Position numbers and translations under genes: made by a program
Shown here: positions 9,897 through 63,295 of the stretch, piece by piece
Layout: every line of letters begins with the position of its first letter
Numbering within the stretch: the stretch's first letter is position 1
The notes under the pieces: generated by a model
The model's database searches: none
The model's input: the letters and a program-made list of their open reading frames with translations, nothing else
What the model was told of the DNA's origin: nothing
Source of the DNA: Polytrichum commune
Taxonomy: Eukaryota; Streptophyta; Polytrichopsida; Polytrichales; Polytrichaceae
DNA length: 64,000 bases
Direction: 5' to 3'
Assembly: GCA_950295325.1 (NCBI GenBank)
Contig: CATNTY010000003.1
Location: forward strand, 1 to 64,000

Positions 9897-10064
9897 ATAA
9901 AAGAGATGAAAACAACAATAATGCTTTTTGCTTGTAACATTGTAAATATATTAGCCAATGTGCTACCTTCTCTTCGAATATCTCCTCTATAATTAATTCG
10001 AATAGCAACTATTGCATTACTTTATGCCGCGGCATTATTAATTTATGTCGTTTATAATAACCCC
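9897..10064 (+). pseudogene. Decayed copy of a NAD2-like HEG N-terminus
   Basis: It begins with the recurrent AATAAAAGAGA box (9897-9907), then ATG at about 9921 and MLFACNIVNILANVLPSLR, a stop, then LIRIATIALLYAAAL. This is a degenerate copy of the N-terminus of the GIY-YIG ORF at 56585. It ends at a family C palindrome. Confidence 0.6.
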
Positions 10065-10210: not shown

Positions 10211-10353
10211 AGTAATTCCCCTAATTTTATTTGAGCTCTACATTTATCTTCACGCACGGCCTATGCATTTTTCGTTCATTTTTCTTACAGACCATCACAG
10301 ATGTTCAGCAGGGAAAACGGTTGGAAGTCACCTACTGCCTGGCCTTTTTACCT

Positions 10354-10592
10354 CCACTGCGGTTCAGGAGCAACTGTGAACACCTAGTGTTCGCAGTTAC
10401 TCCGAATAAGGCTAGATCCGCTTCCCTTTAGGGAAGCGGGCCGCAGGGGCTCCTATTTTCCTCCTCGTATTGACTACCGGTCATCTGTGATGTCCGGCAG
10501 CCAATACTTAGATGGGCCTCTAAAGTTTTACCGCCCGGTCAATGAAATTGACACGAGCCGGTAAAACCTTCGGTCCTTAGGGAAAATAGGGG
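10354..10592 (+). repeat. Family A repeat (copy A6)
   Basis: The first stem base group is altered (CCACTGCGG instead of CCCCTGCGG); otherwise full length. Confidence 0.88.
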
Positions 10593-11147
10593 TTTTACCA
10601 TCAGAGATATCCAGAATGTAAATTATCTTTATCCGTGATGAGACTATTTTGAATAAATTGAATTTTCCAAAGGCTACCGGGTTGGAGGTTATACTCCATT
10701 CTGGGCTACGGACCCTGCGCACTCCACGTTATCGAACGTGAGCCTTCCCTTTCCAACCCTATTTAGAGTACACTGGGCCCTGTCGAAGGCGGGGAGCTGG
10801 GCAATACCGCGTCACTCCATCATGATCAAAATAATGCATGAGAGCAGCTTTTATCTTTACCGCCTGGGGTTCAGGCGAGGCCCTATCCCCTGCCTGCGTA
10901 ATATTGTACTTGACCCCCGATTTGCGCATCATGATCTTAGATCATGATGGCCAAATCGTACTCTTCCCTGAAAGGGAAACTAATTCTTAAAGAATTAGAT
11001 TTGAGGTTAGGGAAGCACGAACGTAGACGTCCACTACGGTCATGTAAACATGACCCTCTGTGTGCAGGTACTATACCGCCTGTATCGGGCTAACTAGCCA
11101 GAGGGTTGGGGCGGTGGTGAAAAGGAAAGTATAAAATTCAAACATAA
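10593..11147. other. Spacer before tRNA-Asp
   Basis: No gene recognised. It contains a family F copy (10916-10961) with the AATTCTTAAAGAATT palindrome and one GAGGTTAGGG unit after it, and several GC hairpins. Confidence 0.55.
10916..10961 (+). repeat. Family F palindrome (copy F2)
   Basis: Same core and same 3' flank (TACTCTTCCCTGAAAG) as copy F1, so the mobile or duplicated unit is longer than the palindrome. Confidence 0.85.
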
Positions 11148-11220
11148 GGGTTGTTAGCTTAATAGGTAAAGCCCCTAAGCGTCACTTAGGATTATATCGG
11201 TTCGATCCCGATAGGACCCG
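11148..11220 (+). tRNA. trnD: tRNA-Asp (GUC)
   Basis: D stem GCTT/AAGC, anticodon stem CCTAA/TTAGG, loop GCGTCAC (anticodon GTC), T arm ATCGG TTCGATC CCGAT. Two oddities: position 33 is C instead of the near-universal T, and the acceptor GGGTTGT/AGGACCC has a G-G mismatch at pair 6-67. Confidence 0.85.
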
Positions 11221-11948
11221 TTGGGATTGTCAAGCCCCTAAATTTAGACACAGACTCCGATAAGACCTGGAATCCCGGAAATCATGTTTTCCGGGATTCA
11301 GCGCGCCTTATTTTTCCCCCTGGGGACCAAGGCGGGGTGGGGACGGGCTGCACCCATTGCCGTCCTGCCAAAATAGGGGTAAGATTATGGCAACTACCCA
11401 TCAGGCCGTTGCCGAACGGCTAATTTCCCCAGGGTTCTTAGATCTTATCCCTCCCAATACTGACTATGTCAGTACTGTGGAGGGAGAGATGAAGATTAAT
11501 CTCCATCCTGGAAGACGTACTGCGCTTGGAGATTCCACCACCAAGCACGGTAGCGTAGGTCCATAAGTTAAATTTGGGTTATAGGAGTTGTGAATACCAA
11601 ACTCCCTTCGTTAATAGATTCAGGTTGGTCTGCCTAGACCAACCTGCATCTATTTTACTCAGGTAATTATGACTGAAGCTGGTCTAGCCAGACCAGCTTA
11701 AGTAAGAAAACCTGAGGGAGCAACCTCTACTACGTCGTTCCCATCAAAAGGAACGAGGTTTTATTACTTTTGTTTTTGTTTGTTCATGTCTGGAAACCCC
11801 CAAATAATGCGTTAACTTGCATGCGGCTCCATACTTCAGGCTAGGGCAGCCTCATCTTTCGTGTGGTTGACAATGATTCGATCTTAACTATAACGGGTCA
11901 GAGTGCAATTTAGGACGCACAAAAAGAATAAAAGAATCAATTTAAATT
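11221..11948. other. tRNA-Asp to nad4L spacer
   Basis: Holds a family E copy, CTCCATCCTGGAAGACG and GTACTGACTATGTCAGTAC-type hairpins, and an AATAAAAGAAT box (11927) about 20 bp before the nad4L start. No gene recognised. Confidence 0.55.
11601..11720 (-). repeat. Family E double hairpin (copy E1)
   Basis: Family E pairs GCTGGTCTGGCTAGACCAGC with AGGTTGGTCTAGGCAGACCAACCT, flanked by CCTCAGG and its complement, and usually ends with a GGAGTCCGGAGAGGGC extension. This copy is reversed and lacks the extension. Confidence 0.85.
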
Positions 11949-12621
11949 ATGAATCTTTCAATAATACTGTTTTTAATTGGAATTTTAGGATTTATATTGA
12001 ATAGAAAAAACATTATCCTATTAATCATTTCCATCGAGATAATGTTACTAGCTGTAACATTACTTGTTTTAATTAGTTCTTTTGGTTTCGATGATAACAT
12101 CGGTCAAACATTCGGTGTATATATTATAGCAATAGCTGGAGCAGAGTCAGTTATAGGATTGAGTATTTTAGTAGCATATTATCGATCTTTCTTGGTCCTG
12201 GGTTAATTCTACATTGGAACCAACCGTAGAACCGGGGTATGGCGGCCTTCGCCCCCGGAACATATATCCACGCAATTCACTAAATGCTGGGACGTATCAT
12301 GATAACTAATAATGTTAATAATTATTTAAAATGTTGTCAAGATGTCATTTGTTTTGATCTTATGACATAACCAATCAGCAGGCTTTATGAAGCCTCAGAG
12401 ACTACACGTGAGTCTGTTAATTATAACACTTGCCGGCCTAACAGTATCCACTTGTCTAATTTTATTCAAAGCGGGTACTTAAAAGTTCTAGTTGGTGTTG
12501 TAATTCTTAGCTACGGAAACATTTAACAGAAGATATAGTCCGACCCTGAATGGTAATCTATATTTAAGAATAAGGGTAAAATTGGGGTTTTGTCAGAGGG
12601 AATATTTCACTAATGACTTAA
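11949..12621 (+). CDS. nad4L: NADH dehydrogenase subunit 4L (two exons)
   Basis: Exon 1 11949-12186 encodes MNLSIILFLIGILGFILNRK through AGAESVIGLSILVAYYR. Joining to 12593-12621 (TCAGAGGG...TAA) restores YYRFRGNISLMT and stop, with T before and G after the intron. A second candidate last exon (13920-13948) restores [12 protein letters not shown], closer to the usual nad4L ending. Membrane subunit of complex I. Which last exon is used cannot be decided from DNA. Confidence 0.9.
12187..12592 (+). other. nad4L group I intron
   Basis: Core seen: CTAAATGCTGGGACG near 12281, CCAATCAGCAGGCTT near 12371, CCTCAGAGACTACACGTG near 12393 and GAAGATATAGTCC near 12529. It has no ORF when it ends at 12592. 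If the downstream native exon is used, the intron extends to 13919. Confidence 0.8.
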
Positions 12622-12769
12622 TGAGAAATACTTTAGTTTCACTGAAGTCTTGGGGAACAATTAGTAATGCTGAACGAATTGCTTCATACATCCACCCCAA
12701 AGATGTAACCATTTCCACAGGTTCACGTAATCTTGATTATATTCAACTTAATCAAACCCCCCGCTGATC
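12621..12769 (+). CDS. Short ORF overlapping the replacement nad4L exon
   Basis: It starts at the ATG of TAATG, overlapping the nad4L stop by one base exactly as native nad5 does at 13948. It reads MRNTLVSLKSWGTISNAE and YIHPKDVTISTGSRNLDYI, then enters the left inverted repeat and stops. I do not recognise it. It may be the separated N-terminus of the downstream HEG, whose frame is also open back into the repeat (SLIPYSLGLGSTVG before its ATG). Confidence 0.35.
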
Positions 12770-12961
12770 GACGTAGATTTGCCTTCGCAAATCGACGATC
12801 AGTGGGAGGTCTGACGCGCTTAGGCCGCCCTACGCTAATTGAATCCCGTTGGTCTGACTAGACCAACGTTATTCAATTTTGCGCAGTAATTCTGACTGAT
12901 GCTGGTCTAGACAGACCAGCACAAGTCAGAAAACTAAGGGCGATCAAAGAGCGCGTCAAAC
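12754..12961 (+). repeat. 208-bp inverted repeat, left arm (composite C-D-C)
   Basis: Perfect complement, as far as I can read, of 13635-13842. It is a family C element interrupted by a family D double hairpin. The two arms enclose the LAGLIDADG ORF at 13011. Confidence 0.92.
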
Positions 12962-13010
12962 TTGTGTTTCATTAATACCATACTCCCTTGGTTTAGGGTC
13001 TACAGTAGGA

Positions 13011-13628
13011 ATGAGATTACCTACTTCTGTTCTATCTGAAATTAAATTAACGCCTGAGGCAATGTCAATTCTAGCGGGTTCTCTTCTAGGTGACGGGAGT
13101 ATTAGAAAACCTTCAACTAATGGAGCTCCTCAGTGGAGATGCAACGTTGGGTTACTCCATATAGAATATCTTCTATTTTTATTTAACCACCTTAGCCCTT
13201 ATTGTGCCCATGCTCCCTCAATGGTGAGAAGAAGAGACGGCTCATATTATTGTTATTTAACTACTAGAAGTTTACCTTGTCTTAACGAACTGCTAAAGGT
13301 ATTTACAGTTAATGGGAATAAATATGTTACAATGGCTATAGCGGAATATATCACACCGCAAGCCTTGGCTATTTGGGCTCAAGACGACGGTACTCGCACT
13401 CCCGAGGGATTCTATTTATGTAGTAACGGTTTCAGTTTAATTGAACAGCAAGTTCTCCAGCGAATCCTATGGATAAATTTTGGTTTACGTGCAACTATTC
13501 ATAAACATTTAGATGGGTACAAACTATATATTCCTGCGGGTTCTATGGAACTTTTTCGAAGTATTGTAACTCCCTACTTTAGTTCACATTTTATGTATAA
13601 ATTAGCTGCTAAAGTTAAAGGGCAATAA
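13011..13628 (+). CDS. LAGLIDADG homing endonuclease inside inverted repeats
   Basis: 205 aa. Motif 1 LAGSLLGDG at residues 24-32, motif 2 LAIWAQDDG near residue 123, C-terminus FMYKLAAKVKGQ. It looks intact. The frame remains open upstream of the ATG as far as the left repeat (SLIPYSLGLGSTVG), so the true start may be upstream and cut off. It lies in the insertion that also carries the replacement nad4L exon. Confidence 0.88.
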   Translation: MRLPTSVLSEIKLTPEAMSILAGSLLGDGSIRKPSTNGAPQWRCNVGLLHIEYLLFLFNHLSPYCAHAPSMVRRRDGSYYCYLTTRSLPCLNELLKVFTVNGNKYVTMAIAEYITPQALAIWAQDDGTRTPEGFYLCSNGFSLIEQQVLQRILWINFGLRATIHKHLDGYKLYIPAGSMELFRSIVTPYFSSHFMYKLAAKVKGQ

Positions 13629-13634
13629 TTATAT

Positions 13635-13842
13635 GTTTGACGCGCTCTTTGATCGCCCTTAGTTTTCTGACTTGTGCTGGTCTGTCTAGACCAGCATCAG
13701 TCAGAATTACTGCGCAAAATTGAATAACGTTGGTCTAGTCAGACCAACGGGATTCAATTAGCGTAGGGCGGCCTAAGCGCGTCAGACCTCCCACTGATCG
13801 TCGATTTGCGAAGGCAAATCTACGTCGATCAGCGGGGGGTTT
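13635..13842 (-). repeat. 208-bp inverted repeat, right arm (composite C-D-C)
   Basis: Begins 7 bp after the HEG stop. Reverse complement of 12754-12961. A third copy, near-identical and in left-arm orientation, lies alone in an rnl intron at about 43072-43271. Confidence 0.92.
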
Positions 13843-13919
13843 TAATATTATCCCTAATTAAATCCCCTTACCCCAATTTCTATTCATTTAAAATTAAGGT
13901 GTTACCATTCATGGGTTTG

Positions 13920-13948
13920 TAAGAGGAACCATTTCACTTAGAACATAA
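13920..13948 (+). CDS. nad4L: Displaced (probably native) last exon of nad4L
   Basis: TAAGAGGAACC...ACATAA. If spliced to exon 1 it gives [10 protein letters not shown] and stop. It is preceded by GGGTTTG, the same intron-end sequence as the upstream copy (GGGGTTTTG), and its stop overlaps the nad5 ATG by one base, the classic fungal nad4L/nad5 arrangement. Confidence 0.7.
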
Positions 13949-16900
13949 TGTATCTATCTATCTTATTTTTACCATTACTAGGTTCTTTAGTTTCAGGACT
14001 ATTAGGACGAAAAATTGGTGTGACTGGAAGTCACATCATTACTTGCTCTTCACTAGGTTTGACTAGTGTTATGGCAGCTATAGCCTTTTACGAAGTAGGT
14101 ATCTGCGGTTCACCTGTATCTATTTACTTAACAAGTTGGATCGATTCTGAGTTAATGTCTGTTTCTTGGGGATTCTTATTTGATTCTTTAACTGTTTCAA
14201 TGTTAATTCCGGTTTTATTCGTTTCAACTTTAGTTCATATCTATTCTATTTCATATATGGGCGAGGATCCACACAACCAAAGATTCTTCTCATACTTATC
14301 ATTATTCACTTTCTTTATGCTTGTTCTAGTAGCAGGAGATTCATACCTAACTATGTTTATCGGTTGGGAGGGTATTGGTATATCTTCATACTTACTAATT
14401 AACTTCTGGTTTACAAGAATTCAAGCTAATAAGTCTGCTATATTGGCTTTAACTATGAATAGAGTTGGTGATATGTTCTTAAGTATTGGATTCTTTGCTA
14501 TATTCTGGCTATTTGGAAATATTGATTATGCCACAGTATTCAGTATTGCTCCATATATGAATGAAACAGCTATAACAATAATAGGTTTATTGTTATTATT
14601 TGCTGCTATGGGAAAATCAGCCCAACTAGGTCTTAATACTTGGTTACCTCATTCAATGGAGGGTCCAACACCTGTTTCTGCTTTACTGCATGCAGCTACC
14701 CTAGTTACAGCTGGATGTTATTTACTTCTTAGATCATCCCCATTATTAGAATATAGTTCTACTGCACTATTAGTAATCTTATGGGTAGGAGCCATAACAG
14801 CTTTCTTTGCTGCTTCTACTGGTCTATTGCAAAATGATTTAAAACGAATAATTGCGTTTAGTACTATTTCTCAAATGGGATATATTTTCTTAGCTGTTGG
14901 TTTGAAATAGGCCCACATTAAATGCTATCATATGCTTGAACACCTTTAAGGTAAATAAGCAGGCTTAAATAAGCCTCAGAGACTAGAAATAGCAACAGAC
15001 AAGTGTCTGTAAGATATAGTCCGAGCAATTGTGAGAACAATTGATATTTCCGTATATCCAATACTAGCATAAAGGCGGTTACAGGGTATGCGGATAACTA
15101 TCAACCCGTACGGTTGCTTACCATACCGATACTAAATATAGCATTAAGCTTCGTCCAGGTTTTGTGCCGGGATCTATAAAAGAGATTCTAGTTATGGTGA
15201 GCGTTGAGTTACTCAAACCAAGGCTCTGCCAGTTAAGTCGGCCCCCAGACCAACTTTATTTTAACTAAGAAGAAATAAATAAGCCAAGTCTTCTGACAAA
15301 ATAATCCCTTCGCCGGTGCAACTGGCGGGGGTTTAGATTTAGAGACTATCACTATACTTTAATTTTATAATAATGTTTTATTTAATATCTTTTCTTCTAG
15401 CGCAACGGCGCAGAATATTCCCTTTTTTAATTCTAATAGCAACAATTGTATTACTTTGTGTCGTGGCATCTTTATTCTCTGAGTTACCTGTTAATGCCAC
15501 TATGGCCTTTAGTACCCCTTTAGTACTACATCGTGCCTACATGGCACCAGAGGACAAAGAGAAATATTCTAATGCTGTTCCTCAAAGCTTCGATGAAATC
15601 ATGTGTGGAGTTATGCTGGGCGACGGGAGCTTATGAATGAATGGTACTAATGCTTTACTAAGCATTCAACAAACGCATAGGGAGATCTCGGATAAACTAT
15701 GGAATATTTGTTTTAGTCTTAATCTAGTTCATACACCCGTGAGAGAACTAATACGACAAAACTGGAAACCAGTTTATCATTTTAAGACTTTTACTATGCC
15801 TTACTTTACTCGGTTATTTAATGCTTGGTACGTCAATATCGAGGGAAAAAACATTAAAGTAATTCCTGCAGGCATTGATAAACTTCTTACTCCTATAGCT
15901 TTAGCACATTGGATAATGGGAGATGCAGGATTTGATGATCACGGACGAGGAGCTGGGCGATTAACTCTGTATACAAATCGCTATAAAAGAGATTCTAGTT
16001 AAAAAATATCCTTTTATATAAAGAAGGGTATAACCGCATGATGACACTATTAGATGTTGCAATTTGAATAATTGTCAACATCTAATAGGTCAGGACGTGC
16101 GTAGCCGTCCCCCCATGCGGTTACATGCTTTTGGCAACTTACGTTGCCAAAATATGTGCTCAGCGCTCTTTGATCGCCCAAAGGGCGGCCTAAGCGCTGA
16201 GTACTCCTAAATAATCGGTGATTTGCGAAGGCAAATCTACGCCGATTATTTGGGGTGTGTATCGAAGATACCAAGTGGCGAATTAGATGTAGCAATTATT
16301 CTAATTGCAACATCTAATTCCAGGGTTTAGGAGTTGGGTTCCCCAATTAACTGTGAAGAAATAAATAAGCCGAGTCTTTTGACATAATAAATCCTAGTTG
16401 TTTTCCGGAACAACAAAGGTATTTAGAATTAGAGACTATTACTATACTAATTTCATATAAATGTTTTATCTATTCAAATCTTTTTTTCGAATAACTCTTT
16501 TGTTAATTTTAATAACAATTATTCCGTTACTATGTGCCGTTGCATTATCATCTAATGTCGAAAATATTCAGCCAATTGGATATTGTGTAGTACTCTCCTC
16601 TTTACCATTATTAAAACCTCGAGAGGGTTTAGTGTCACGCCGTTTAACTGATTCTGGAAAATTGCAATTTACTCTTTCACCCCAATTGAAAGACATCTTG
16701 GTTGGTCTCATACTTGGTGACCTTAATGTTAACAACCGAAGGTTAGGTATAAATCCATGTTTAAGGTTTAGACAAGGAGCAGTACATGAAGATTACCTGC
16801 TTCACTTGTATGAGCTATTTAAAGAATTTTGTCCTTCAGGTCCAAAAACACAAACTGTAAAGCTTAAAGTCTCGGAGAAAGTTTATCAAGCAATATATTT

Positions 16901-18551
16901 TGGAACTTACGCTTTACCTTGTTTTGGTGAGTTTTTGAATATTTTTTACCCGGACGGTATTAAAGTTGTACCAGCTAATATCGCAAATCTGTTGACACCC
17001 TCGGGCCTCGCTTATTGGATTTGCGATGATGGTGGATTCAATAAGAAAAACCGTGCAGTAGTACTAAGTACTCAAAGTTTTACTTTGGAGGGTGTTGAGC
17101 TTTTAGCTAAAACTTTAAATGAAAAATTCGATTTAAATTGCACTATAAATAAAAATGGAAATAATTTTGTTATTAGAATTTCATCAAAATCGCTTTCATT
17201 GTTACAGGACTTGCTTACTCCGCATATGCCAAATATGATGAGACATAAAATAGGGTTATAGACCGTGCTGGTTAACCATCACGGGGTTTTAGTTAATTTT
17301 ACACTAGAAGAAGTTGAACTTCTTCAAAAATTATTACTTGATAAATTTGGTTTGGAGTCTGCTCTTTATAAAAGGACAAACCAAGATTCTAAACGGGGTT
17401 ACGCTATACGAATTCCCTCTAGATCACTTCCCACTCTTCAATCTATTGTTGCTCCTCACATTTACCCTAGCTTGCTATATAAAATCGGTATGTAATAGTT
17501 ACATTTAACAAAACTGCTTTCTCAACATAATGTAGCTCTATTCCACTTAGTAAATCACGCTTTCTTCAAGAGTTTACTATTCTTATCTGCAGGTGCAATT
17601 ATTCACGCTATGGCAGATCAACAAGATGTAAGAAAACTAGGAGGACTTATTAATTTCCTGCCGTTTACTTACACTGCAATGTTAGCGGGAAGTCTTTCTT
17701 TAGCTGCTTTACCATGGTTAACTGGATTCTTTAGTAAAGATTTGATCATTGAACTAGCAGGAGCTCAATATAGCTTCTCCGGTCAAACAGCCTACTGGCT
17801 TGGAACAATAACAGCAGTATTAACAGCTTTCTACTCATTCCGATTAATTTCTCTAGTATTCTTAACTTATCCAAATGCACCTAAAACAGACTACCTTCAT
17901 GTACATGAAGGAGATTTAACAGTGGTAATCCCACTATTTATTCTTTCTCTATTTAGTATTTTCTTTGGTTATGTGTTTGCAGATTTATTTGTAGGAGTAG
18001 GAACCGATTTCTTTGCTAATAGTTTATTCATCCACCCGGATCACGTAACATTGATAGAAGCTGAATTTTCTTTACCTATCTTATTTAAATTACTACCTAC
18101 AATTGGTAGTGTATTTGCTGCAGCTTTAGCTCTATTCCTTTACCACAAATCACCTACATTCCTAGTAGATTTAACAGAATCACCATTAGGACACAGCCTA
18201 TATTCATTCTTTAATGGTAAATATCTATTAGATATAATCTATAATAATTATATCATTCAAGGAGGATTGCAATTAGGTTATACAATATCTAAATTCTTAG
18301 ATAGAGGTATGATCGAACTAGTAGGACCTTATGGAATATCTTCATTCTTAAGTAAAACAGGAACAAACGTAGCAAAATTAGATACAGGAATCGTGACAAG
18401 TTACGCCCTATATATCGTATTAGGATTGATAACTTTACTATTCTTACTTTTCGCACCTATTTTATTAGATACATCTCCACTAAGTGAAATCCGATTGGTA
18501 ATCATCTATCTATCTTCATTAGTGTTATTAAATGCCACAGCTAAAGCATAA
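13948..18551 (+). CDS. nad5: NADH dehydrogenase subunit 5 (two exons)
   Basis: Exon 1 13948-14901 ([17 protein letters not shown] to [11 protein letters not shown]) and exon 2 17517-18551 ([18 protein letters not shown] to NATAKA, TAA) join to 662 aa. The signature proton-pumping segments are present: [47 protein letters not shown] and HALADQQD-like [16 protein letters not shown]-terminal lateral helix follows. Complex I antiporter-like membrane subunit. Translationally linked to nad4L by ATG overlap. Confidence 0.95.
15174..15185 (+). promoter_or_regulatory. ATAAAAGAGA box opening a HEG module
   Basis: CTATAAAAGAGATTCTAGTTA recurs at 15981 and (AATAAAAGAGATTCTAGTT) at 27483, each time 70-370 bp upstream of the cox2-type leader and a HEG. 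Confidence 0.4.
15269..15372 (+). promoter_or_regulatory. cox2-type leader ahead of a HEG
   Basis: GAAGAAATAAATAAGCC, AGTCTTCTGACAAAATAATCC, a hairpin (CCGGTGCAACTGGCGG region), then GATTTAGAGACTATCAC just before the ATG. The same blocks in the same order precede cox2 (53922-54220) and the HEGs at 16461 and 27648. Confidence 0.65.
15373..16002 (+). pseudogene. LAGLIDADG HEG with in-frame TGA, split by a second HEG module
   Basis: ATG at 15373 opens a hydrophobic N-terminus ([18 protein letters not shown]), then motif 1 [13 protein letters not shown] at 15634-15636, and in the same frame [19 protein letters not shown] to LAHWIMGDA and RLTLYTN (about 15980). The family usually has an aromatic residue at the TGA position. 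The C-terminus ([18 protein letters not shown] to SLLYKIGM) is found at 17280-17495, so a block from about 15981 to 17285 was inserted. Confidence 0.75.
15981..15992 (+). promoter_or_regulatory. ATAAAAGAGA box at the inserted HEG module boundary
   Basis: Lies exactly where the reading frame of the outer HEG is lost, marking the 5' edge of the nested module. Confidence 0.4.
16030..16122. repeat. Diverged family B-like palindrome (B3)
   Basis: Outer stem TAACCGCATG...CATGCGGTTA; contains AGGACGTGCGTAGCCGTCCCC of family B and an inner AGATGTTGCAA...CAACATCT hairpin. Confidence 0.6.
16147..16256 (-). repeat. Family C double hairpin (copy C4)
   Basis: Both hairpins intact: CTCAGCGCTCTTTGATCGCC...GCGCTGAG and ATAATCGGTGATTTGCG...CGATTAT. 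Confidence 0.88.
16355..16460 (+). promoter_or_regulatory. cox2-type leader ahead of the nested HEG
   Basis: GAAGAAATAAATAAGCCGAG, TCTTTTGACATAATAAATCC, a GTTGTTTTCCGGAACAAC hairpin, then AATTAGAGACTATTACTATAC before ATG 16461. Confidence 0.65.
16461..17261 (+). CDS. LAGLIDADG homing endonuclease with hydrophobic N-terminus
   Basis: 266 aa, apparently intact. Residues 1-50 are strongly hydrophobic ([22 protein letters not shown]) and end in [11 protein letters not shown], the same type of prefix as at 21456, 24435 and 27648. Motif 1 LVGLILGDL near residue 76, motif 2 LAYWICDDG near residue 183, C-terminus MMRHKIGL. The final base of the classical first motif is Leu instead of Gly. Inserted with its leader into an older HEG of the nad5 intron. 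Confidence 0.88.
   Translation: MFYLFKSFFRITLLLILITIIPLLCAVALSSNVENIQPIGYCVVLSSLPLLKPREGLVSRRLTDSGKLQFTLSPQLKDILVGLILGDLNVNNRRLGINPCLRFRQGAVHEDYLLHLYELFKEFCPSGPKTQTVKLKVSEKVYQAIYFGTYALPCFGEFLNIFYPDGIKVVPANIANLLTPSGLAYWICDDGGFNKKNRAVVLSTQSFTLEGVELLAKTLNEKFDLNCTINKNGNNFVIRISSKSLSLLQDLLTPHMPNMMRHKIGL
17280..17495 (+). pseudogene. C-terminal half of the interrupted nad5 intron HEG
   Basis: Reads [21 protein letters not shown] to [12 protein letters not shown]. It joins logically to RLTLYTN at about 15980 across the inserted HEG module. Confidence 0.7.
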
Positions 18552-21455: not shown

Positions 21456-22199
21456 ATGCAAAAAAACAATTTACTTATTTTACTAATTCTAATAGCGCCT
21501 TATGCGCTGTTATGTTCAAACCACCCTTTAGAGGTTATTTTACTATGTTCTTTAGTGCCTGTAAAACCAGAATCTAGAATGACAAAATTGGAAAGAGACA
21601 AATTTTCTCTTACTCCCCAGTTAGGAGAAATCCTTGTGGGGCTTTTACTGGGCGATCTGAGTGCTCGAAGACCCAAACCTTCTGCAAACACCAGACTACT
21701 GTTTGCCCAAAGTATAATACATGAAGATTACCTCCTCCATTTGTACGATGTGTTTAAGGACTTTTGTAAGTCAGCCCCTAAAACAGTTACTCCAATGGCA
21801 CATAAAAAAACTGACAAAGTCTATCCTTATATAAGATTTGAAGCAAGATCTTTACCCTGCTTTAATTTTTATTACGATCTTTTTTATTCGGATGGGAAAA
21901 AGGTTGTTCCATCAAATATAGGTGAAATATTGACACCTTTGAGCCTTAGCTATTGGCTTGCTGATGATGGTTGCTTCCACATTAGAGATTACGATATTTA
22001 TCTCTGCACAAATGGTTTTACCTTTGCAGAAACAAATCTATTAATAAGTGTTCTTAAAGAAAAATTCAATTTAGAATGTTCTAGAATACTACAAAAAAAT
22101 AAATACATGATTAGAATCTCCAGAAAAAGCTTACCTGTTGTACAATCTTTATTAAAGGACTCAATGCCTACTATGATGAAATATAAAATAGGTCTTTAA
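21456..22199 (+). CDS. LAGLIDADG homing endonuclease with hydrophobic N-terminus
   Basis: 247 aa, intact. Prefix LLILLILIAPYALLC, then VILLCSLVPVKPESRM. Motif 1 LVGLLLGDL near residue 62, motif 2 LSYWLADDG near residue 169, C-terminus MMKYKIGL. It lies between the two copies of the cox1 5' end, so it probably travelled with, or caused, that duplication. Confidence 0.88.
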   Translation: MQKNNLLILLILIAPYALLCSNHPLEVILLCSLVPVKPESRMTKLERDKFSLTPQLGEILVGLLLGDLSARRPKPSANTRLLFAQSIIHEDYLLHLYDVFKDFCKSAPKTVTPMAHKKTDKVYPYIRFEARSLPCFNFYYDLFYSDGKKVVPSNIGEILTPLSLSYWLADDGCFHIRDYDIYLCTNGFTFAETNLLISVLKEKFNLECSRILQKNKYMIRISRKSLPVVQSLLKDSMPTMMKYKIGL

Positions 22200-22345: not shown

Positions 22346-32490
<10,145 letters not shown>

Positions 32491-42852: not shown

Positions 42853-43514
42853 GATTAGTTTCTAATATTACTACCATATTAGGGTCCTTTTTAAATTTAA
42901 CTATATGCTGGAACATCTTTTTAATAAGTTGTTTTTCTTTGGTTTTATATTAATCTTAGCTTAATGTGCTAAAATAATATTTAAACTACGACAGCCGTGC
43001 CATTTTAAGCACGGCAAATACTATTTAGATTATACTAAAGTAATTCATCAAAATATATTCATGAACACACCCCCGCTGATCGACGTAGATTTGCCTTCGC
43101 AAATCGACGATCAGTGGGAGGTCTGACGCGCTTAGGCCGCTCTACGCTAATTGAATCCCGTTGGTCTGACTAGACCAACGTTATTCAATTTTGCGCAGTA
43201 ATTCTGACTGATGCTGGTCTAGACAGACCAGCACAAGTCATAAAACTAAGGCCGATCAAAGAGCGCGTCAAACTTATTTTTACAGACAATCAGCAGGGAA
43301 TTACTAGAGATATCAACTTCACGAGAAGTGTAGGTTAGTATCCTAGTTCCCTCAGAGACTAAACGTTAAACAAAAACTATATTTCGTTAATTTCTTACTC
43401 CTATAATATATAATAATTCATTTCGTATATTATATACTATAACCCCCTCTTGGGGTAAATAATTTAATTTGTTTTTGATGATATAGTCCAAATATTTATA
43501 ACATTATAAATATA
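42853..43514 (+). other. rnl group I intron 3
   Basis: Separates CTTAACTATAAG from CCTAAGGTAGCG. Core: AACTATATGCTGGAACATC near 42900, GACAATCAGCAGGGAA near 43286, CCTCAGAGACTAAACG near 43348 and TGATATAGTCCAA near 43479. A 200-bp composite C-D-C palindrome (43072-43271) fills the loop before the second element. The exact splice sites are uncertain by a few bases. Confidence 0.72.
43072..43271 (+). repeat. Composite C-D-C palindrome, third copy (C10)
   Basis: Nearly identical to the left arm at 12754-12961; differences include GCTCTACGC for GCCCTACGC and GGCCGATC for GGGCGATC. Here it is solitary, without an opposing arm or HEG. Confidence 0.88.
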
Positions 43515-44339: not shown

Positions 44340-44695
44340 GTAAGTTGTATGGTACTAATCTTAGTTACGAGGCTAACCTTTTCTAAAGGTTTTGTTCTGA
44401 ATTATTCTGGAATGGTAATTTAATTACCCAGAATATAAACCCAGATCTTACGAAGACGAGGGTTTAATTGACCCGTGGATTAGTTATAGTCCCAGCCAGC
44501 TTCGCTGGCAGGTTGATAAGCAGATGATCCAAATTTTCGCAGATTCAATTCCTGGCTCCTAGTAGCCAGGTTAGGATTAACCTACCGATATTTGGGGATA
44601 GTTTTGAGTCCTATAATCGCCTGAATCAAAAATTATACGGCAAATAGGATATTCAAGACAATATAACTCGTGTTTTCACTTTATAAAATCAAAAT
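44340..44695 (+). promoter_or_regulatory. Structured module ahead of a LAGLIDADG HEG (copy 2)
   Basis: Second copy of the module at 25143, in an unrelated intron and before an unrelated nuclease. The conserved blocks are in the same order, and the loops differ (here CCAGCCAGCTTCGCTGGCAGG and CCTGGCTCCTAGTAGCCAGG replace other hairpins). Confidence 0.6.
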
Positions 44696-54220: not shown

Positions 54221-56339
54221 ATGAGTATCTTATTCACATTTTTACAACCAATTTATAACGATGCGCCAGAACCATGGCAAATCGGATTCCAAGACGGTGC
54301 TTCACCAGGATTCGAAGGAATTACTGAATTACACGATTCAATTTTCTTCTTCTTAGTAGTTATTTCAGTAGGAGTATTCTGGGCTTTAGGGTCAGTAATG
54401 ATTAACTTTAACTCAACTAGCTCGCCTATTGTATACAAATACGCCAACCACGGTACGCTTATGTGCCTTCATGCTAAATCAAATTGTCTAATAAAAACAA
54501 GAAATATTACCCTAAGACATTATTCTAGTCAAGAAGTTACAGGTGATAAAGTAGATAGTGAAGCTCAGATGGATATAACTAAACCTGAAAAATGCTATAA
54601 TGATGCTTTTGCTTCAAAATCACTTATTTTAAAGGAAAACAAAAATAAGTCTGGCATATATAAGTTTACTAATAAATTAAATGGTAATTTCTATATCGGA
54701 AGTTCCAAGGATTTAAGTAACCGATTTATTAAATATTTTAGTCTATCCTACATATCCACTGTAAAAAATCATTTGACTATTTCTCGAGCTTTAATTAAAT
54801 ATGGTTATTCTAATTTTACTCTTGAAATATTAGAATACTGCGATGTTTCTGTATTACTAGAAAGAGAGCAACATTATCTTGATCTATTAAAGCCTACTTA
54901 CAATATTGCTAAAATAGCAGGTTCTACATTAGGAGTACCGAAAACCTCAGAGACAAAAGCTAAAATAAGTCAAGCTCTTAAAGGTTTTCTGACTTGTGCT
55001 GGTCTGTCTAGACCAGCATCAGTCAGAATTGCCTTTAAGCAAAATTGAATAACGTTGGTCTAGTCAGACCAACGGGATTCAATTAGCTTAAAGGTGTTTA
55101 TACCGGGGAGAAAAGTCCTTTATTTGGTAAAACACATGCAGAAGAGACAAAACTATTAATGAGTCAAGCTCGTCAAGGTACTGATAACTCCATGTATGGA
55201 AAAACTCATACTGAGCAATCCAAACTATTAATGAGTCTTGCTAAAACAGGTAAAGTTCGTGACAATAAAACAAGAATATCAATCTCTGCGGCAAATGGAA
55301 CTGCGGTATTTTTATACGCAGCTTGCTCAGAGCACTCTCCAGATGCTTTTTGCTTAATACAAGAATTTACTTCGTTAAGAGAAGCAGGAAAATATTTAGG
55401 CATTAGTCACAGTAATGTGTCAAGATATGTAAAATCAGGTGCTTTATTTTCTCGAAGAGGTATCAGTTACAAATTCTCTCTTACTTTATTAGATAAATAA
55501 TTTGGGCTTTCTCTGAATTTTTATAGAAAGTCCCAAACGCATGACAAATTTCACTAATTGCTGGAAAATTTAAATTACTTTAAGTACTAATGTAGTAAAA
55601 ATCTGAAAGTTGAATATATAAATTAATCAGCAGGATCTGTTTATATAAAATATAAATCGGTTCCTCATCGACTATACGTGAAAACACTATTTTAAGGTTA
55701 ATGGCAAAACCCATGTTATGTTCATGATTTATAACTTTGCCTAGCTAAGGTTATATGTTTTTAATAGTGTAAGATATAGTCAACCCCCCTTTGGCTACGG
55801 CCGTAGTGGGGGTGACGCTTATAGAGTTAATCTGGACTATTACTCCGGCTTTAGTTTTAATAGCTATCGCATTTCCTAGTTTCAAATTATTATACATGCT
55901 TGATGAAGTAATTTCACCAACTATGACTATTAAAGTAGCAGGTCACCAATGGTACTGGTCATATGAATACTCTGATTTTATTAACGAAGACGGAGAAGCC
56001 ATTGAATACGATTCATATATGGTTCCTGAAAGCGACCTAGAAGATGGGCAATTAAGATTACTTGATGTTGATAACAGAGTTGTTGTTCCTGTAGACACAC
56101 ACATCAGATTTATTGTAACAGCTACAGATGTAATTCACGATTTTGCTGTACCATCATTAGGTCTTAAAATAGATGCAGTTCCTGGTCGATTAAATCAAAC
56201 TTCAGTTCTTGTTCAACGGGAAGGTGTGTTCTACGGGCAATGCTCTGAAATCTGCGGAGTATACCATGGATTCATGCCTGCAGTGATTGAAGCTGTGTCA
56301 CTAGAAAAATACCTAGTGTGGCTTGACAGCCAATATTAA
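54221..56339 (+). CDS. cox2: Cytochrome c oxidase subunit 2 (two exons)
   Basis: Exon 1 54221-54454 ([19 protein letters not shown] to YKYANHG) and exon 2 55815-56339 ([18 protein letters not shown] to [12 protein letters not shown]). Joined 252 aa. Two N-terminal membrane helices, [14 protein letters not shown] (aromatic electron-entry region), [19 protein letters not shown] and the Cu-A site [15 protein letters not shown]. The T/G splice rule holds. Complex IV, binds cytochrome c and Cu-A. A second copy of the last 18 codons lies 2 kb downstream. Confidence 0.96.
54455..55500 (+). pseudogene. GIY-YIG HEG in the cox2 intron, split by a palindrome
   Basis: In frame with exon 1. [37 protein letters not shown], then [13 protein letters not shown] and at about 54982 family D copy D7. 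After it ([18 protein letters not shown], about 55092) the same protein continues in another frame with repeated GKTH.EE.KLLMS modules to LTLLDK, TAA 55500. An intact product needs a frame-changing bypass or removal of the insert; otherwise it is truncated. Confidence 0.78.
54982..55092 (+). repeat. Family D double hairpin inside a HEG (copy D7)
   Basis: Flanks CTTAAAGG on both sides; linker GCCTTTAAGC is their complement instead of the usual GCTTTGCC. Confidence 0.92.
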
Positions 56340-56584: not shown

Positions 56585-58204
56585 ATGCTTTTTGCTAGTA
56601 CAATTATTTTTATTATAGCCAATGCGCTACCTTCTCTTCGAACATCTCTTTTTTTAATACGAATAATAGCTATTGCTCTACTTTATGCCGCAGCACTTTA
56701 CTGGAGTGTTGTTTATATTCAGTCGATTGGATTTGGTGTAGGTGTCCTTAGCGAGTTATTCGATAATTTTTCTTCTTCAGAATACTTCATTAATACAACT
56801 GCCGATGTAGACTTAATATGTCCTTTTTTATTTTCTTTAGTTCCCACAAAATTAGATGAAAACAAAATTCCTTGGAATGACACAGATATGATGAAAGGAA
56901 ACCGAATAGTTCTTAAAAAAATGTATGAGAGCTACTCTTCTAATCCTATTGTAAAGTCCTTTTTAGATGCTAAAATCAACCATTTACTTAATGCACCTGA
57001 AGGGGATACAGGGATATCTTATTCTTCTCTAACTAAAGATTCAATTTTAACTAATCCTGCTACAAAATCTCTTACTAAAAACTATAAGCCTTCTCTGTTC
57101 ACTTCGTATAGTGGTGTCTATGTGATACAGTCTCATAGTACCAAAGATTTCTATGTGGGCAGTGCAACGGACTTCTCTAGACGATTTAGCAATCACTACA
57201 GTAGTCTGCGAGAAAGTAGCCTATTAAATGGAAATTCAAGTCTAATTTACACAACTCTTAGTTCTATGGGTCCAACTAAATTTAGTTGGTCTCCTGTTGT
57301 ATTAACTCCAAATTACCATAAAGAATTTGTTTTGTTAAACAAAAATTCGTCTGAGTTAATCAAAGACATTCATCTTTATAATGTTCTTTTGCATTTCACA
57401 CAATACGAAGCAAGAGCTACAGAGCAAGCTATTTTAAGCGCTACAGGGCCATCTCTAAATACAGAATCTGAAGTTAGTTTGACTTTAGAGTGGGATTCAG
57501 ATAAAGAGTATACCGATAAAAGAGGTTCCAAATCTATCCAAGCTATTGAGAAAATTTCAGGAAAAGTTCATTACTTTAATTCTATCCGTCAAGCAGCTGA
57601 TCTTCTTAATGTTGAAAAACGTAATATTCAAACATATATTAACTGTATAAATTTCCATAAATCTAGTGTTTTAGGGGAATACGTGCGATTTGTTGATATT
57701 ACCAAACCAATAAAAGAAGTGCACCCTTATTCTAAAGAAAATTTACCATTAGTACAAGGAATCAATTATGATGAAATTCCTCTAGGACAAATTTGGGCTT
57801 ACGATGAAAGTCTCAATAAAATAGGGGAATTTACATCTAGTTTAAAAGCAGCAAGTTTATTTAATATTTCTAAAGGAGCAGTACTCAATAATATTAATAA
57901 AAAATTCACTAATGGAATTTTTGAGGGTAAAGTTCTATCTTTATTATTTTGTAGAAACATTCTAGGTGCAATTAGTAACAAAATTCCAGTGGTAGTTATA
58001 GATCAGCAAACTGGCCAAGCCTACCATTATTCCACAATTGGAGGTGCAAGTCGAGCTATCGGTATGGGGAAAACAATAAACCCTGGTATGGTTAAAACTA
58101 AATGGATTAAATCTGGGAGATTATACCAAAATAGATGGTTAATTGTCGAGGAATCAAATTATGCTGGAAAACCTTACACTGAAGGCCCTACAACTCTAGT
58201 GTAA
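56585..58204 (+). CDS. Large GIY-YIG homing endonuclease with NAD2-like N-terminus
   Basis: 539 aa, intact. Residues 1-60 (NALPSLRTSLFLIRIIAIALLYAAALYW, VYIQSIGFGVGV) look like a NADH dehydrogenase subunit 2 N-terminus, and the prefix ends LFSLVPTKLDENK. GIY-YIG domain about 177-320: [39 protein letters not shown]-terminal repeats of a helix-turn-helix type: SIRQAADLLNVEKRNIQTYI, SLKAASLFNISKGAVLNNI, TIGGASRAIGMGK. It sits between two copies of the cox2 3' end. Confidence 0.9.
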   Translation: MLFASTIIFIIANALPSLRTSLFLIRIIAIALLYAAALYWSVVYIQSIGFGVGVLSELFDNFSSSEYFINTTADVDLICPFLFSLVPTKLDENKIPWNDTDMMKGNRIVLKKMYESYSSNPIVKSFLDAKINHLLNAPEGDTGISYSSLTKDSILTNPATKSLTKNYKPSLFTSYSGVYVIQSHSTKDFYVGSATDFSRRFSNHYSSLRESSLLNGNSSLIYTTLSSMGPTKFSWSPVVLTPNYHKEFVLLNKNSSELIKDIHLYNVLLHFTQYEARATEQAILSATGPSLNTESEVSLTLEWDSDKEYTDKRGSKSIQAIEKISGKVHYFNSIRQAADLLNVEKRNIQTYINCINFHKSSVLGEYVRFVDITKPIKEVHPYSKENLPLVQGINYDEIPLGQIWAYDESLNKIGEFTSSLKAASLFNISKGAVLNNINKKFTNGIFEGKVLSLLFCRNILGAISNKIPVVVIDQQTGQAYHYSTIGGASRAIGMGKTINPGMVKTKWIKSGRLYQNRWLIVEESNYAGKPYTEGPTTLV

Positions 58205-60100: not shown

Positions 60101-63100
60101 ATGTCATCCACAGGATTTAATTTATTAAACGTCCTTATTGTTCTTGTACCTATGTTATTAGGTGTTGCTTTCATGACCATAATAGAAAGAAAAGTATTAG
60201 CGGCCATGCAAAGAAGAGTAGGTCCAGATACTGTTGGTATCTATGGTATAGCTCAACCATTTGTCTAGCAAGTGGCACTATTTCGCAAGAGATAATTGAA
60301 AACAGAACTATATGCTGGTAAGCGTCAGTTAAGAATTTATACTCATTGAGTGACAATTAAGTTTTTAGGCTCAATCAGCAGGGAAGAGTTCATCATCCTT
60401 CAACGATCACACGTTCTGCATACTTATGAGTATGGTGATATGATCTACCCTTAATGGGAGGTTGCATTTGTGTTATTACTCTTTTTTATTATTTACCAAC
60501 TTGTGCATTTAGATTCCAGTGAAAACAGCAGTCTTGCTCTCAACGTCTTTGTTGGCAAAGAACCAGGTAAAGTGTATCGACACATTATTAAATACCCCTG
60601 CGGTTCAGGAGCAACTGTGAACACCTAGTGTTCGCAGTTACTCCGAATAAGGCTAGATCCGCTTCCCTTTAGGGAAGCGGGCCGGGCCCTCCGCAGGGGC
60701 TCCTATTTACCTCCTCGTATTGACTACCGGTCATCTGTGATGTCCGGCAGCCAATACTTAGATGGGCCTCTAAAGTTTTACCGCCCGGTCAATGAAATTG
60801 ACACGAGCCGGTAAAACCTTCGGTCCTTAGGGAAAATAGGGGTATGTCTTGGCCTAAAATTGAACGGTTTAAAAAACATAGAGCCCTGGCTCATTGTAAG
60901 GACGTACCCCGATTTGGCCATCATGATCTAAGATCATGATGCGCAAATCGGGGTATTGGTTTCCTTCCGGCGAGCTTGGAATGGAGTTAGTGGTATTTAC
61001 AAAATCACGTTTTTACCGTTCCGATTATTTAGCTACTACGGTTCTAGTGTCGATTTAGGAAGTCGATTCACATATCATTATTACAACGGGCCTAAACAAA
61101 ACAACTTCTTAGGTTTATTTCTTAAGGTATTTGGATGGTCTTTCTTTTCAATCACTGTAGTAGAAACTTGTCCCCGAGATCAGCTAAATGTTCGAGAAAA
61201 TTGGTATTTATCTACTTTCAAACCGCTTCTCAATATTTTAATGGTTGCTTCATCGGATCCGCGAGTTCCAGGTGCACTGTCGTTATTAACCCGATCAAAA
61301 ATCAGTGCCAGTTTACCAGGGCAAATAGATTCTGAAATCACTCGAGCTCGAAAAAGTAAATCTAAACAAGGGGAAAACAATCCATTCTATGGTAAAGGAC
61401 CAGGACTTTAAGCTTTAGACATTGCAGCTGAAAAAGCAGGCACTAAAGTTTCTGTATATGATGTAACTAATTTTACACTTGTAAATGGGGATCCTTTTCG
61501 AAGTATTCGAATGGTTGCTGAGGCAATGAATATCTCAGCAAGATCACTAGCAAGAAAACTAGATACGGGAAAACCATACAATGTTTTCTGACTTGTGCTG
61601 GTCTGTCTAGACCAGCATCAGTCAGAATTGCATTGCCAAAATTGAATAACGTTGGTCTAGTCAGACCAACGGGATTCAATTAGACAATGGGTACTATTAT
61701 TACAGTCAAGCACAATCACGACCATAGAAATAAAAAATTGCTCCCATTAAGCAAAGTTGCAGATGCGGCTAAATTAGTGCTTAAAGAAACAATTATACCA
61801 GCACAAGCAAATAAAGTTCTATTTTATTTAGCACCTGTTGCTACTTTAATCTTTAGTCTATTAGGGTGGGCAGTAATTCCTTTCGGAGATGGCTTAGTAC
61901 TCTTCGATTTCTCTTTAGGAATCTTGTATACATTAGCTCTATCCTCTCTAGGAATCTATGGAGTATTATTTGCGGGATGGTCTGCTAACTCTAAATACGC
62001 CTTTTTAGGTTCTTTAAGATCAACTGCGGCTATGATTAGTTATGAATTAATTTTAAGTACTGCCGTAATAATTATAATACTTCTTACAGGTTCATTTAAT
62101 ATAACTAAAATAATAGAATGCCAACAATCAGTATGGCACATAGTTCCATTATTGCCAGTATTCTTTTTCTTCTTTATATCAATATTAGCTGAAACATCAA
62201 GAACACCATTTGATCTACAAGAGGCTGTGTTAAAACAAATATAATCACAATACTAATTCCAAGATTCGGTCTCTATAAAGAACGTCATATGCTGGAAAGA
62301 CCTAAAGCTTTAATTCCAAAAATATAGTTATGGAGAAATTATAAAGATGTTACAATGGTCAATCAGCAGGAAATATTCAAATCGGCTTAATATTGGATCT
62401 TTAAATCTAATGTTAGAGCGACTTATTATCCTCAGAGAATAAACGCGGTCATTGAAATTTATAAATAAAAATGAATTATTTTTAATTGCTATTTCAATAT
62501 GGTATATTCCTTTCCCCCTGCGGTTCAGGAGCAACTGTGAACACCTAGTGTTCGCAGTTACTCCGAATAAGGCTAGATCCGCTTCCCTTTAGGGAAGCGG
62601 GCCGGGCCCTCCGCAGGGGCTCCTATTTACCTCCTCGTATTGACTACCGGTCATCTGTGATGTCCGGCAGCCAATACTTAGATGGGCCTCTAAAGTTTTA
62701 CCGCCCGGTCAATGAAATTGACACGAGCCGGTAAAACCTTCGGTCCTTAGGGAAAATAGGGGTTTGTCTAAAAGTTTCACCCCCCGATTTGCGCATCATG
62801 ATCTTAGATCATGATGGCCAAATCGGACTACTTAAAGATTAAGGGTTATTAATTAAGGAAAATCAATAAGCAACTAATTAAATTATTTCCTTAAGTTAAT
62901 CCCTTAACTTAACAATGTGGCCGGTCCATTTTTTTTAGGAATCAGAATTAGTAGCCGGTTTCTTCACTGAGCACTCTTCAATTATATTCGTTTTCTTCTT
63001 CCTTGGAGAGTATTGCTCTATTGTATTGATGTCAACTTTAACAATGATATTATTCTTTGGTGGATATTTATTACCAGAAATTGTTGTTAACGAAACATTT

Positions 63101-63295
63101 ATAAATCTACAATCTATCATACTAGGTTTAAAAACATGTTTTGCTACAGGGTTGTTTGTTTGGTTCAGAGCAACATTACCTCGATTAAGATATGATCAGT
63201 TAATGTTATTCTGTTGGACAGGTTTACTACCTATTGCTATAGGGTTGACAGCCTTAGTGCCCGGACTGCTTATAGCTTGGGACTGGATGCCCTAA
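60101..63295 (+). CDS. nad1: NADH dehydrogenase subunit 1 (three exons)
   Basis: Exons 60101-60262 (MSSTGFNLLNVLIVLVP to YGIAQPF), 61759-62226 (ADAAKLVLKETIIPAQANK to RTPFDLQEA) and 62939-63295 (ESELVAGFFTEHSSIIFVF to IAWDWMP, TAA) give 328 aa. Signature segments: ERKVLAAMQRRVGPD, GWAVIPFGDGLVLFDF, LAETSRTPFDLQEAESELVAGF, RATLPRLRYDQLM. The exon 1/2 junction leaves the G of GCA ambiguous. Complex I subunit at the quinone site. Confidence 0.95.
60595..60843 (+). repeat. Family A repeat inside a HEG (copy A9)
   Basis: Full length with the GGGCCC join; same as copies A4 and A10. Confidence 0.92.
60908..60955 (-). repeat. Family F palindrome inside a HEG (copy F4)
   Basis: CCCCGATTTGGCCATCATGATC and TAAGATCATGATGCGCAAATCGGGG, with longer perfect outer stem than F1. 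Confidence 0.9.
61582..61690 (+). repeat. Family D double hairpin inside a HEG (copy D8)
   Basis: Flanks ACAATG and GACAATGG, linker GCATTGCC: the linker again matches the local target. Confidence 0.92.
62515..62763 (+). repeat. Family A repeat (copy A10)
   Basis: Full length, in nad1 intron 2, same orientation as the intron. Confidence 0.92.
62782..62826 (+). repeat. Family F palindrome (copy F5)
   Basis: Nineteen bp after A10; A9 and F4 show the same A-then-F order in nad1 intron 1. Confidence 0.88.

What the first reader, a model, noticed from the sequence alone, without database searches (positions are those of the whole stretch)
56585..58204. Homing endonucleases of unrelated families share a NAD2-like hydrophobic N-terminus
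Seen: ORFs at 15373, 16461, 21456, 24435, 27648 (LAGLIDADG) and 25469, 56585 (GIY-YIG), plus a decayed copy at 9918, begin with 40-90 hydrophobic residues, most ending in a SL.P(V/T)K-type segment before the nuclease. The fullest copies (NALPSLRTSLFLIRI...LLYAAALYW at 56585; [13 protein letters not shown]...FYLVGAL at 27648) match my knowledge of fungal NAD2 N-termini. Inference: a nad2 5' segment was captured once and shuffled between HEGs, perhaps for expression signals or membrane-coupled translation. Alternative: convergent hydrophobic leaders.
Basis: partly seen in the sequence, partly recalled or inferred. Interest (0 to 1): 0.85.

Follow-up and report, generated by a model that had tools for sequence, protein, structure and literature searches.

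The report
Selfish nucleases wearing a nad2 leader
In a partial fungal mitochondrial genome, a free-standing DNA-cutting selfish gene begins with what looks like a worn copy of the start of the respiratory gene nad2, and recognisable bits of that same start also sit at the front of unrelated selfish nucleases in nearby introns, perhaps to get them translated at the membrane.

Summary
The window is most of contig C9, an incomplete 67 kb fungal-type mitogenome in a plant assembly. Seven of 18 unfused endonuclease ORFs that I listed start with a hydrophobic leader. NAD2 likeness holds for two places: GIY-YIG ORF 56585 and its decayed copy at 9921. With NAD2 from six fungal-type records plus one PDB chain, the 56585 leader aligns from Met-1 (16.8 bits; 0 of 1236 hydrophobic control windows reach it), and profile-profile comparison ranks the NAD2 N-terminus first of 179 windows (score 30.7; next family 16.0). 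DNA similarity carries the segment, in frame, into nad5-intron LAGLIDADG ORFs 16461 and 15373, weakly into 27648. Leaders of 21456, 24435 and 25469 show no clear DNA or NAD2 N-terminal match, though 21456, 24435, 25469 and 56585 share a junction motif. Leader and nuclease relationships disagree, so the leader probably moved as a module. Its function (start signal, membrane-coupled translation) is inferred; codon changes show little constraint, hydrophobicity is partly kept. Single-sequence searches miss NAD2, and the genome's own nad2 is absent, so capture could not be tested directly. Verdict: partly supported; a new variant of known gene-fragment/endonuclease hybrids.

The parts
56585..56860 (+). 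Fullest leader: 92 codons, NAD2-like, two TM-like segments (residues 7-25 and 27-45); ..FSLVPTKL falls where NAD2 has, for example, ..TGFYPRKL
56861..58201 (+). Rest of the same ORF: partial GIY-YIG domain, NUMOD1 and HmuI-type NUMOD; free-standing between cox2 (ORF ends 56339) and nad1 (matches from 60134)
9921..10058 (+). Decayed copy of the leader with an in-frame TAA, followed by a hairpin repeat from 10059; no nuclease attached
16461..16619 (+). Leader of LAGLIDADG_2 ORF in the nad5 intron; 16480-16590 is 70% identical, in frame, to 56631-56741
16620..17258 (+). LAGLIDADG_2 nuclease, closest of nine compared in C9 to the leaderless ORF 5991
15373..15549 (+). Leader of a LAGLIDADG_2 ORF (in-frame TGA, probably broken) in the nad5 intron; 15427-15469 is 86% identical to 9993-10035
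27648..27806 (+). Leader of LAGLIDADG_1 ORF in a cox1 intron; similar to the 15373 leader at protein level (0 of 814 control windows as high), weak at DNA level
27807..28661 (+). LAGLIDADG_1 nuclease
21456..21569 (+). Hydrophobic leader of free-standing LAGLIDADG_2 ORF between nad5 and cox1; junction motif SLVPVK (30 nt around it 70% identical to the 56585 junction)
24435..24581 (+). Hydrophobic leader of a LAGLIDADG_2 ORF (in-frame TGA, probably broken) in a cox1 intron; motif SIIPVK
25469..25621 (+). Hydrophobic leader of GIY-YIG ORF in the same cox1 intron; motif SLIPVV
15262..15372 (+). Group I intron core (Q- and R-like elements, names recalled) just before the 15373 ATG
16348..16458 (+). 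Homologous group I intron core just before the 16461 ATG
27551..27645 (+). Homologous group I intron core just before the 27648 ATG (73-77% to the two nad5-intron cores)

Best explanation
A duplicated 5' piece of a nad2 gene, about codons 1 to 90 (start codon through the third membrane helix, ending near ..FYPRKL), became fused in frame to a free-standing GIY-YIG endonuclease gene (56585). A second copy decayed at 9921. A middle part of the same piece (the second membrane helix) was copied, in frame, to the start of LAGLIDADG endonuclease ORFs that lie directly behind related group I intron cores in nad5, and perhaps in cox1. There it serves as a ready-made N-terminus that replaces the usual fusion to the upstream exon: it supplies a start codon and a hydrophobic signal, so that the membrane-bound mitochondrial ribosome translates the ORF, and the nuclease is then freed through the flexible linker after the helix. 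Shown: sequence similarity, in-frame sharing, disagreement between leader and nuclease relationships. Inferred: capture from nad2 of this lineage, direction of copying, and the expression/membrane role.
For: The NAD2 N-terminal HMM ranks the 56585 ORF first of 1694 six-frame ORFs of C9, though at E 0.021, above HMMER's inclusion line. Leader alone: 16.8 bits, residues 1-68 to model 1-69; 0 of 1236 hydrophobic control windows reach it, best 9.5; 9921: 8.1 bits, 0 of 613, best 7.8. Against 598 windows of 14 mitochondrial gene families (575 gave a score), best is NAD2, 18.8 bits, next family 8.3; for 9921 NAD2 9.5, next 4.0. hhalign with 56585+9921: score 30.7, probability 72%, first of 179 windows, next family 16.0; with five leaders pooled 29.6 against 15.9. 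blastn within C9: 56585 to 9921 E 3e-23, to 16461 E 4e-9; 9921 to 15373 E 2e-9. Synonymous difference of the 56585/16461 leaders is 0.34 per site, that of three LAGLIDADG domain pairs 0.63-0.77, which suggests later sharing of the leader. 16461's nearest nuclease is leaderless 5991 (score 584), against 126 for 15373. Hydrophobicity of the helix is kept beyond a neutral simulation in one direction (p 0.001; reverse 0.055). AlphaFold2 of 16461: low-confidence helix 3-30, disordered 27-59, then a confident nuclease fold.
Against: Single-sequence searches do not retrieve NAD2: leaders against PDB (seven-leader profile) and against the ORFs of the six fungal-type loci. The leader scores 12-19 bits where genuine NAD2 left out of the model scores 52-140. 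The other leaders do not stand out against hydrophobic windows: as high or higher 42 of 1150 (27648), 214 of 745 (16461), 39 of 963 (15373), 1081 of 1657 (21456), 455 of 2577 (24435), 19 of 558 (25469); with all families as controls 27648, 16461 and 15373 match cox1, nad4 and nad1 best. Codon changes between the 56585 and 16461 leaders fall evenly on the three positions (11, 12, 11; dN/dS about 0.8; other leader pairs 0.5 to 1.8 on 15-37 codons), so no specific residue sequence is clearly kept. The leader divergence is measured only on stretches that still align, which biases it downwards. 11 of 18 unfused endonuclease ORFs lack an N-terminal leader.
Confidence: 0.6

Rival explanations
1. Convergent leaders: T-rich mitochondrial DNA read in frame gives hydrophobic peptides, and any such N-terminus helps translation at the membrane; NAD2 likeness is coincidence.
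For: No match better than E 0.09 from 21456, 24435 or 25469 to another leader; 32 of 162 ATG ORFs of C9 have such a segment; flat codon-position pattern.
Against: In-frame DNA similarity among 56585, 9921, 16461 and 15373, best links E 9e-8 to 3e-23; NAD2 best of 598 windows for 56585 and 9921; 0 of 1236 hydrophobic windows; junction DNA of 56585 and 21456 70% identical over 30 nt, 0 of 2000 codon shuffles as high.
Confidence: 0.18
2. The leaders of 56585, 9921, 16461 and 15373 are one shared module, but it comes from another unsampled gene or is an old N-terminal domain of mobile ORFs, not from nad2.
For: Similarity to NAD2 is weak and single-sequence searches fail; several conserved NAD2 residues (RRD, NR, GG) are partly lost.
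Against: Alignment to NAD2 starts at Met-1 of both and stays in register to the ..P.KL end; NAD2 far ahead of 11 other families in hhalign.
Confidence: 0.15
3. 56585 is the true first exon of nad2, fused in frame to the ORF of a nad2 intron, the ordinary exon-fused arrangement; the rest of nad2 is elsewhere or trans-spliced.
For: The leader spans NAD2 1-89; exon-fused endonucleases exist in this contig (cox1 22346, cox2 54194); nad2 is otherwise missing.
Against: No NAD2 or Proton_antipo_M match on C9 after 58204, nor elsewhere on C9 apart from nad5; the leader is far more diverged than the genuine NAD2 tested; the same segment is at other endonucleases.
Confidence: 0.07

Closest known systems
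nad3-fragment/GIY-YIG ORFs of Chrysoporthe austroafricana and Cryphonectria parasitica (PMC4894602; passages read)
   Same: 5' part homologous to a nad gene (368 and 160 bp), 3' part a GIY-YIG domain, outside the native gene
   Different: There nad3 at 82% identity and GIY-YIG only; here nad2, much more diverged, and the segment is also found at LAGLIDADG ORFs in introns
Partial nad2 5' duplications (Chrysoporthe 2,718-bp ORF, PMC4894602; Stemphylium lycopersici, PMC5626475; passages read)
   Same: 5' part of nad2 copied elsewhere in the mitogenome; a nonsense codon in the Stemphylium copy as in 9921
   Different: No endonuclease fusion described for nad2 in the passages read
Mobile ORFs (mORFs) of Glomus and Allomyces forming gene hybrids (PMC3630166; passages read)
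   Same: Endonuclease ORFs that travel with pieces of respiratory genes
   Different: Those carry C-terminal gene pieces; here an N-terminal piece is the start of the ORF
Exon-fused intronic endonucleases; free GIY-YIG duplicated with the atp9 N-terminus (PMC7487136; passages read)
   Same: Endonuclease translated from a host gene's start; the paper reports the suggestion that fusion gives access to cis elements for expression
   Different: The leader is not the upstream exon of the gene in which the ORF sits

Membership tests
GIY-YIG homing endonuclease (56585, 25469) | GIY-YIG catalytic domain above the Pfam cut-off | tested here: met
   25.0 and 44.1 bits, cut-off 22.6; the 56585 match covers only profile 2-37 of 78
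LAGLIDADG homing endonuclease (15373, 16461, 21456, 24435, 27648) | LAGLIDADG_1 or _2 domain above cut-off | tested here: met
   58.6-169 bits; 15373 and 24435 were read through an in-frame TGA under code 4
Homing endonuclease | DNA cleavage and homing activity | not testable with these tools
   needs expression and cleavage assay
NAD2 | Homology of the leader to the NAD2 N-terminus | tested here: met
   56585 and 9921 only; 16461 and 15373 only by DNA similarity to these; not met for 21456 and 24435, inconclusive for 25469 and 27648
NAD2 | Proton_antipo_M core (functional NAD2) | tested here: not met
   no match after the leader or elsewhere on C9 except nad5
Exon-fused intronic endonuclease | ORF continuous with the upstream exon of its own host gene | tested here: not met
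   the seven open frames begin after the matched end of the preceding exon
Gene-fragment/endonuclease hybrid (mORF-like) | Piece of a respiratory gene joined in frame to an endonuclease outside that gene | tested here: met
   56585
Gene-fragment/endonuclease hybrid (mORF-like) | High identity to the genome's own donor gene | tested here: inconclusive
   no nad2 of this fungus found; contig incomplete (cob matches start at residue 132)

The most novel reading that the evidence does not exclude
Mitochondrial selfish nucleases of unrelated families share and trade a portable N-terminal module derived from a respiratory gene, independent of both the nuclease and the host intron, which couples them to membrane-bound mitochondrial translation; the S-L/I-x-P-x-K junction marks where nucleases are swapped onto (or cut free from) such leaders.
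Probability: 0.35. Interest if true: 0.65.

Novelty: new variant of a known kind. Interest (0 to 1): 0.5.

Why it matters
How an intronic or free-standing endonuclease ORF that is not fused to an exon gets translated in mitochondria, where ribosomes sit at the membrane and messages need gene-specific start signals (recalled), is, as far as I know, open. A leader copied from a respiratory gene start and shared between GIY-YIG and LAGLIDADG ORFs would be a general answer and gives a simple test: do unfused endonucleases of other fungi carry foreign gene starts? It also warns annotators that a 'nad2' match can be an endonuclease leader.

Tried and rejected
Single-leader and seven-leader profile searches of PDB gave no NAD2. 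A single distant NAD2 (7zm7 chain 2) gave only marginal pairwise scores: best of two alignment modes p 0.03 for 56585 and 0.02 for 27648, with 8 and 6 of 212 control windows as good, so more NAD2 was needed. IMG/VR scans gave no fungal mitochondrion (none; seven cox1 relatives, phage- or bacteria-like in the part of their ORFs that I saw, output cut; none). A phage search gave nothing for 56585 and a plasmid search four distant LAGLIDADG matches for 16461. The first profile-window scan pooled NAD2 with NAD5 and was redone clean, then with 14 families. In one search NAD2 N-terminal windows came first also for 27648 and 25469, but not for 27648 and only narrowly, at a later window, for 25469, so I do not claim these. 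A tree of nine LAGLIDADG_2 domains had no supported fork; only its score matrix is used. C9 control '62900-63292' was labelled cox3 but is nad1; it stays a membrane-protein control. In one search the 24435 leader was entered without its first six residues.

Rejected: leader = upstream exon of the host gene; 56585 = ordinary nad2 exon 1 (no second exon found).

Full report
Setting. G000 is a 407.8 Mb assembly of 64 contigs; contig C8 carries Proton_antipo_M genes that I take for plastid ndh genes and a RuBisCO large subunit, so the assembly is of a plant. The window is bases 1-64000 of contig C9 (67,364 bp). C9 is a fungal-type mitogenome: its nad5 exon is closest in PDB to 7zm7 (450.7 bits; Chaetomium, organism recalled), ahead of 7ar7 (389.3 bits; plant, recalled), so it is probably a symbiont or contaminant. 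It carries the later part of cob, nad6, nad4L, nad5, cox1, atp6, cox2, nad1, both rRNAs and 8 tRNAs. Cob matches start at residue 132, the ends show no exact overlap, and nad2, nad3, nad4, cox3, atp9 and rps3 gave no match, so it is incomplete and the absence of nad2 is not informative. In the rest of G000 no nad2 match looked fungal (best 33-38% identity; the other hits were not examined one by one).

The observation. All seven ORFs named begin with a hydrophobic segment. Of 22 endonuclease ORFs that I listed there, 18 are unfused and not relics, and 7 of these 18 have it; the two exon-fused ones (cox1, cox2) get theirs from the exon. A strict junction motif found 5 times in the six-frame translation of C9 lies 4 times at a leader/nuclease junction. 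When TGA is a stop, 15373 and 24435 are interrupted, so they are probably decayed.

Is it NAD2? The collections held no labelled fungal mitogenomes, but a scan of prokaryote genomes with a conserved NAD2 stretch found six contigs with mitochondrial nad2 filed under bacterial names (L017-L022, 72-92% identical to the query). I take them for fungal from that closeness; L019 and L022 are close to each other, so the six are not fully independent. With these and the 7zm7 chain I built an NAD2 N-terminal model. Of 1694 six-frame ORFs of C9 the 56585 ORF scored best, at E 0.021. The leader alone scored 16.8 bits, colinear from Met-1. None of 1236 equally long hydrophobic windows reached it; for 9921 none of 613 did (8.1 bits, control maximum 7.8). 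The other six leaders did not stand out: 42 of 1150, 214 of 745, 39 of 963, 1081 of 1657, 455 of 2577 and 19 of 558 windows were as high for 27648, 16461, 15373, 21456, 24435 and 25469. Against 598 profile windows from 14 gene families the best family for 56585 and 9921 was NAD2, by 10.5 and 5.5 bits. Profile-profile comparison put NAD2 first of 179 windows from 12 families, nearly twofold ahead of the next family. In the alignment with the six the leader runs through NAD2 1-89 with a one-residue gap and, against three of the six, two extra residues; it ends FSLVPTKL where NAD2 has, for example, TGFYPRKL. Against this, single-sequence searches failed, a seven-leader profile found no NAD2 in PDB, and the leader is far more diverged than the genuine NAD2 tested (11.7-18.8 against 52-140 bits).

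How far does the module extend? By DNA, 56585 matches 9921 (77%, E 3e-23) and 16461 (70% over 111 nt, E 4e-9); 9921 matches 15373 (86% over 43 nt, E 2e-9) and 16461 (E 9e-8). 27648 appears near the top of these lists only at E 0.02-0.2. From 21456, 24435 and 25469 no match to another leader is better than E 0.09. At protein level the pairs 21456/25469, 21456/15373 and 27648/15373 score above all control windows (0 of 890, 0 of 872, 0 of 814), and the 30 nt around the junction of 56585 and 21456 are 70% identical (0 of 2000 codon shuffles as high), so a wider common origin is not excluded. The shared DNA stretches of 56585, 9921, 16461 and 15373 are in the same reading frame. Upstream of 15373, 16461 and 27648 lies a homologous group I intron core with Q- and R-like motifs (names recalled), ending 0-4 nt before the ATG; an S-like motif follows the 27648 ORF, which would put that ORF between R and S. 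The 260 nt upstream of 56585 and of 9921 do not match that core.

Module shuffling. Among nine LAGLIDADG_2 domains compared, 16461's is closest to leaderless 5991 (score 584) and far from 15373's (126), although their leaders share DNA. The synonymous difference of the 56585/16461 leaders (0.34) is lower than in the three LAGLIDADG domain pairs compared (0.63-0.77). This suggests that the leader was passed on after those nucleases had split, with the caution that only leader stretches that still align are measured. The stretch upstream of the GIY-YIG ORF 25469 matches that upstream of the LAGLIDADG ORF 44687 at 84%, another sign of one intron type with different nucleases.

Mechanism. The near-neutral codon pattern argues against a conserved residue sequence, while retained hydrophobicity (p 0.001 and 0.055 for the helix, 0.020 and 0.056 for all 37 codons) fits a membrane signal. 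AlphaFold2 shows helix (low confidence), disordered linker, nuclease in 16461. I infer that the leader supplies start and membrane coupling in place of an exon fusion; this is untested.

What is known. Hybrids of nad3 pieces with GIY-YIG, partial nad2 duplications, mobile ORFs with gene C-termini and free GIY-YIG duplicated with the atp9 N-terminus are in print (passages of four papers read). In the eight paper searches made, of which I saw the listings and passages of those four papers, I saw no report of one respiratory-gene start shared by endonucleases of different families. One further nad2 5' copy turned up here: L017 3633-3842 repeats the start of that contig's nad2.

Noticed in passing
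G000 C9 (window and L009): An incomplete fungal-type mitogenome lies in a plant assembly, probably a symbiont or contaminant; its fungal group was not determined.
   Followed up: partly
L017-L022: Six prokaryote genome records (among them Tolypothrix, Fictibacillus and several MAGs) contain contigs with fungal-type mitochondrial genes.
   Followed up: yes
L017 3633-3842: Partial copy of the nad2 start upstream of the complete nad2 in that contig.
   Followed up: no
window 4843-63877, many copies: Abundant G+C-rich hairpin-like repeats (families D3-D10) scattered through the contig, also in or beside endonuclease ORFs, e.g. at the end of the cox2-fused GIY-YIG ORF (54978-55096).
   Followed up: no
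window 25362-25463 and 44585-44689: Stretch upstream of GIY-YIG ORF 25469 (cox1 intron) is 84% identical to that upstream of LAGLIDADG ORF 44687, downstream of the rnl match; the similarity stops at the ORF starts, and 44687 has no leader.
   Followed up: partly
window 14943-17517 and 24222-26858: One nad5 junction and one cox1 junction each hold two endonuclease ORFs, which suggests composite or nested introns.
   Followed up: no
window 12758-12969 and 43070-43281: 212-bp direct repeat, 98% identical.
   Followed up: no
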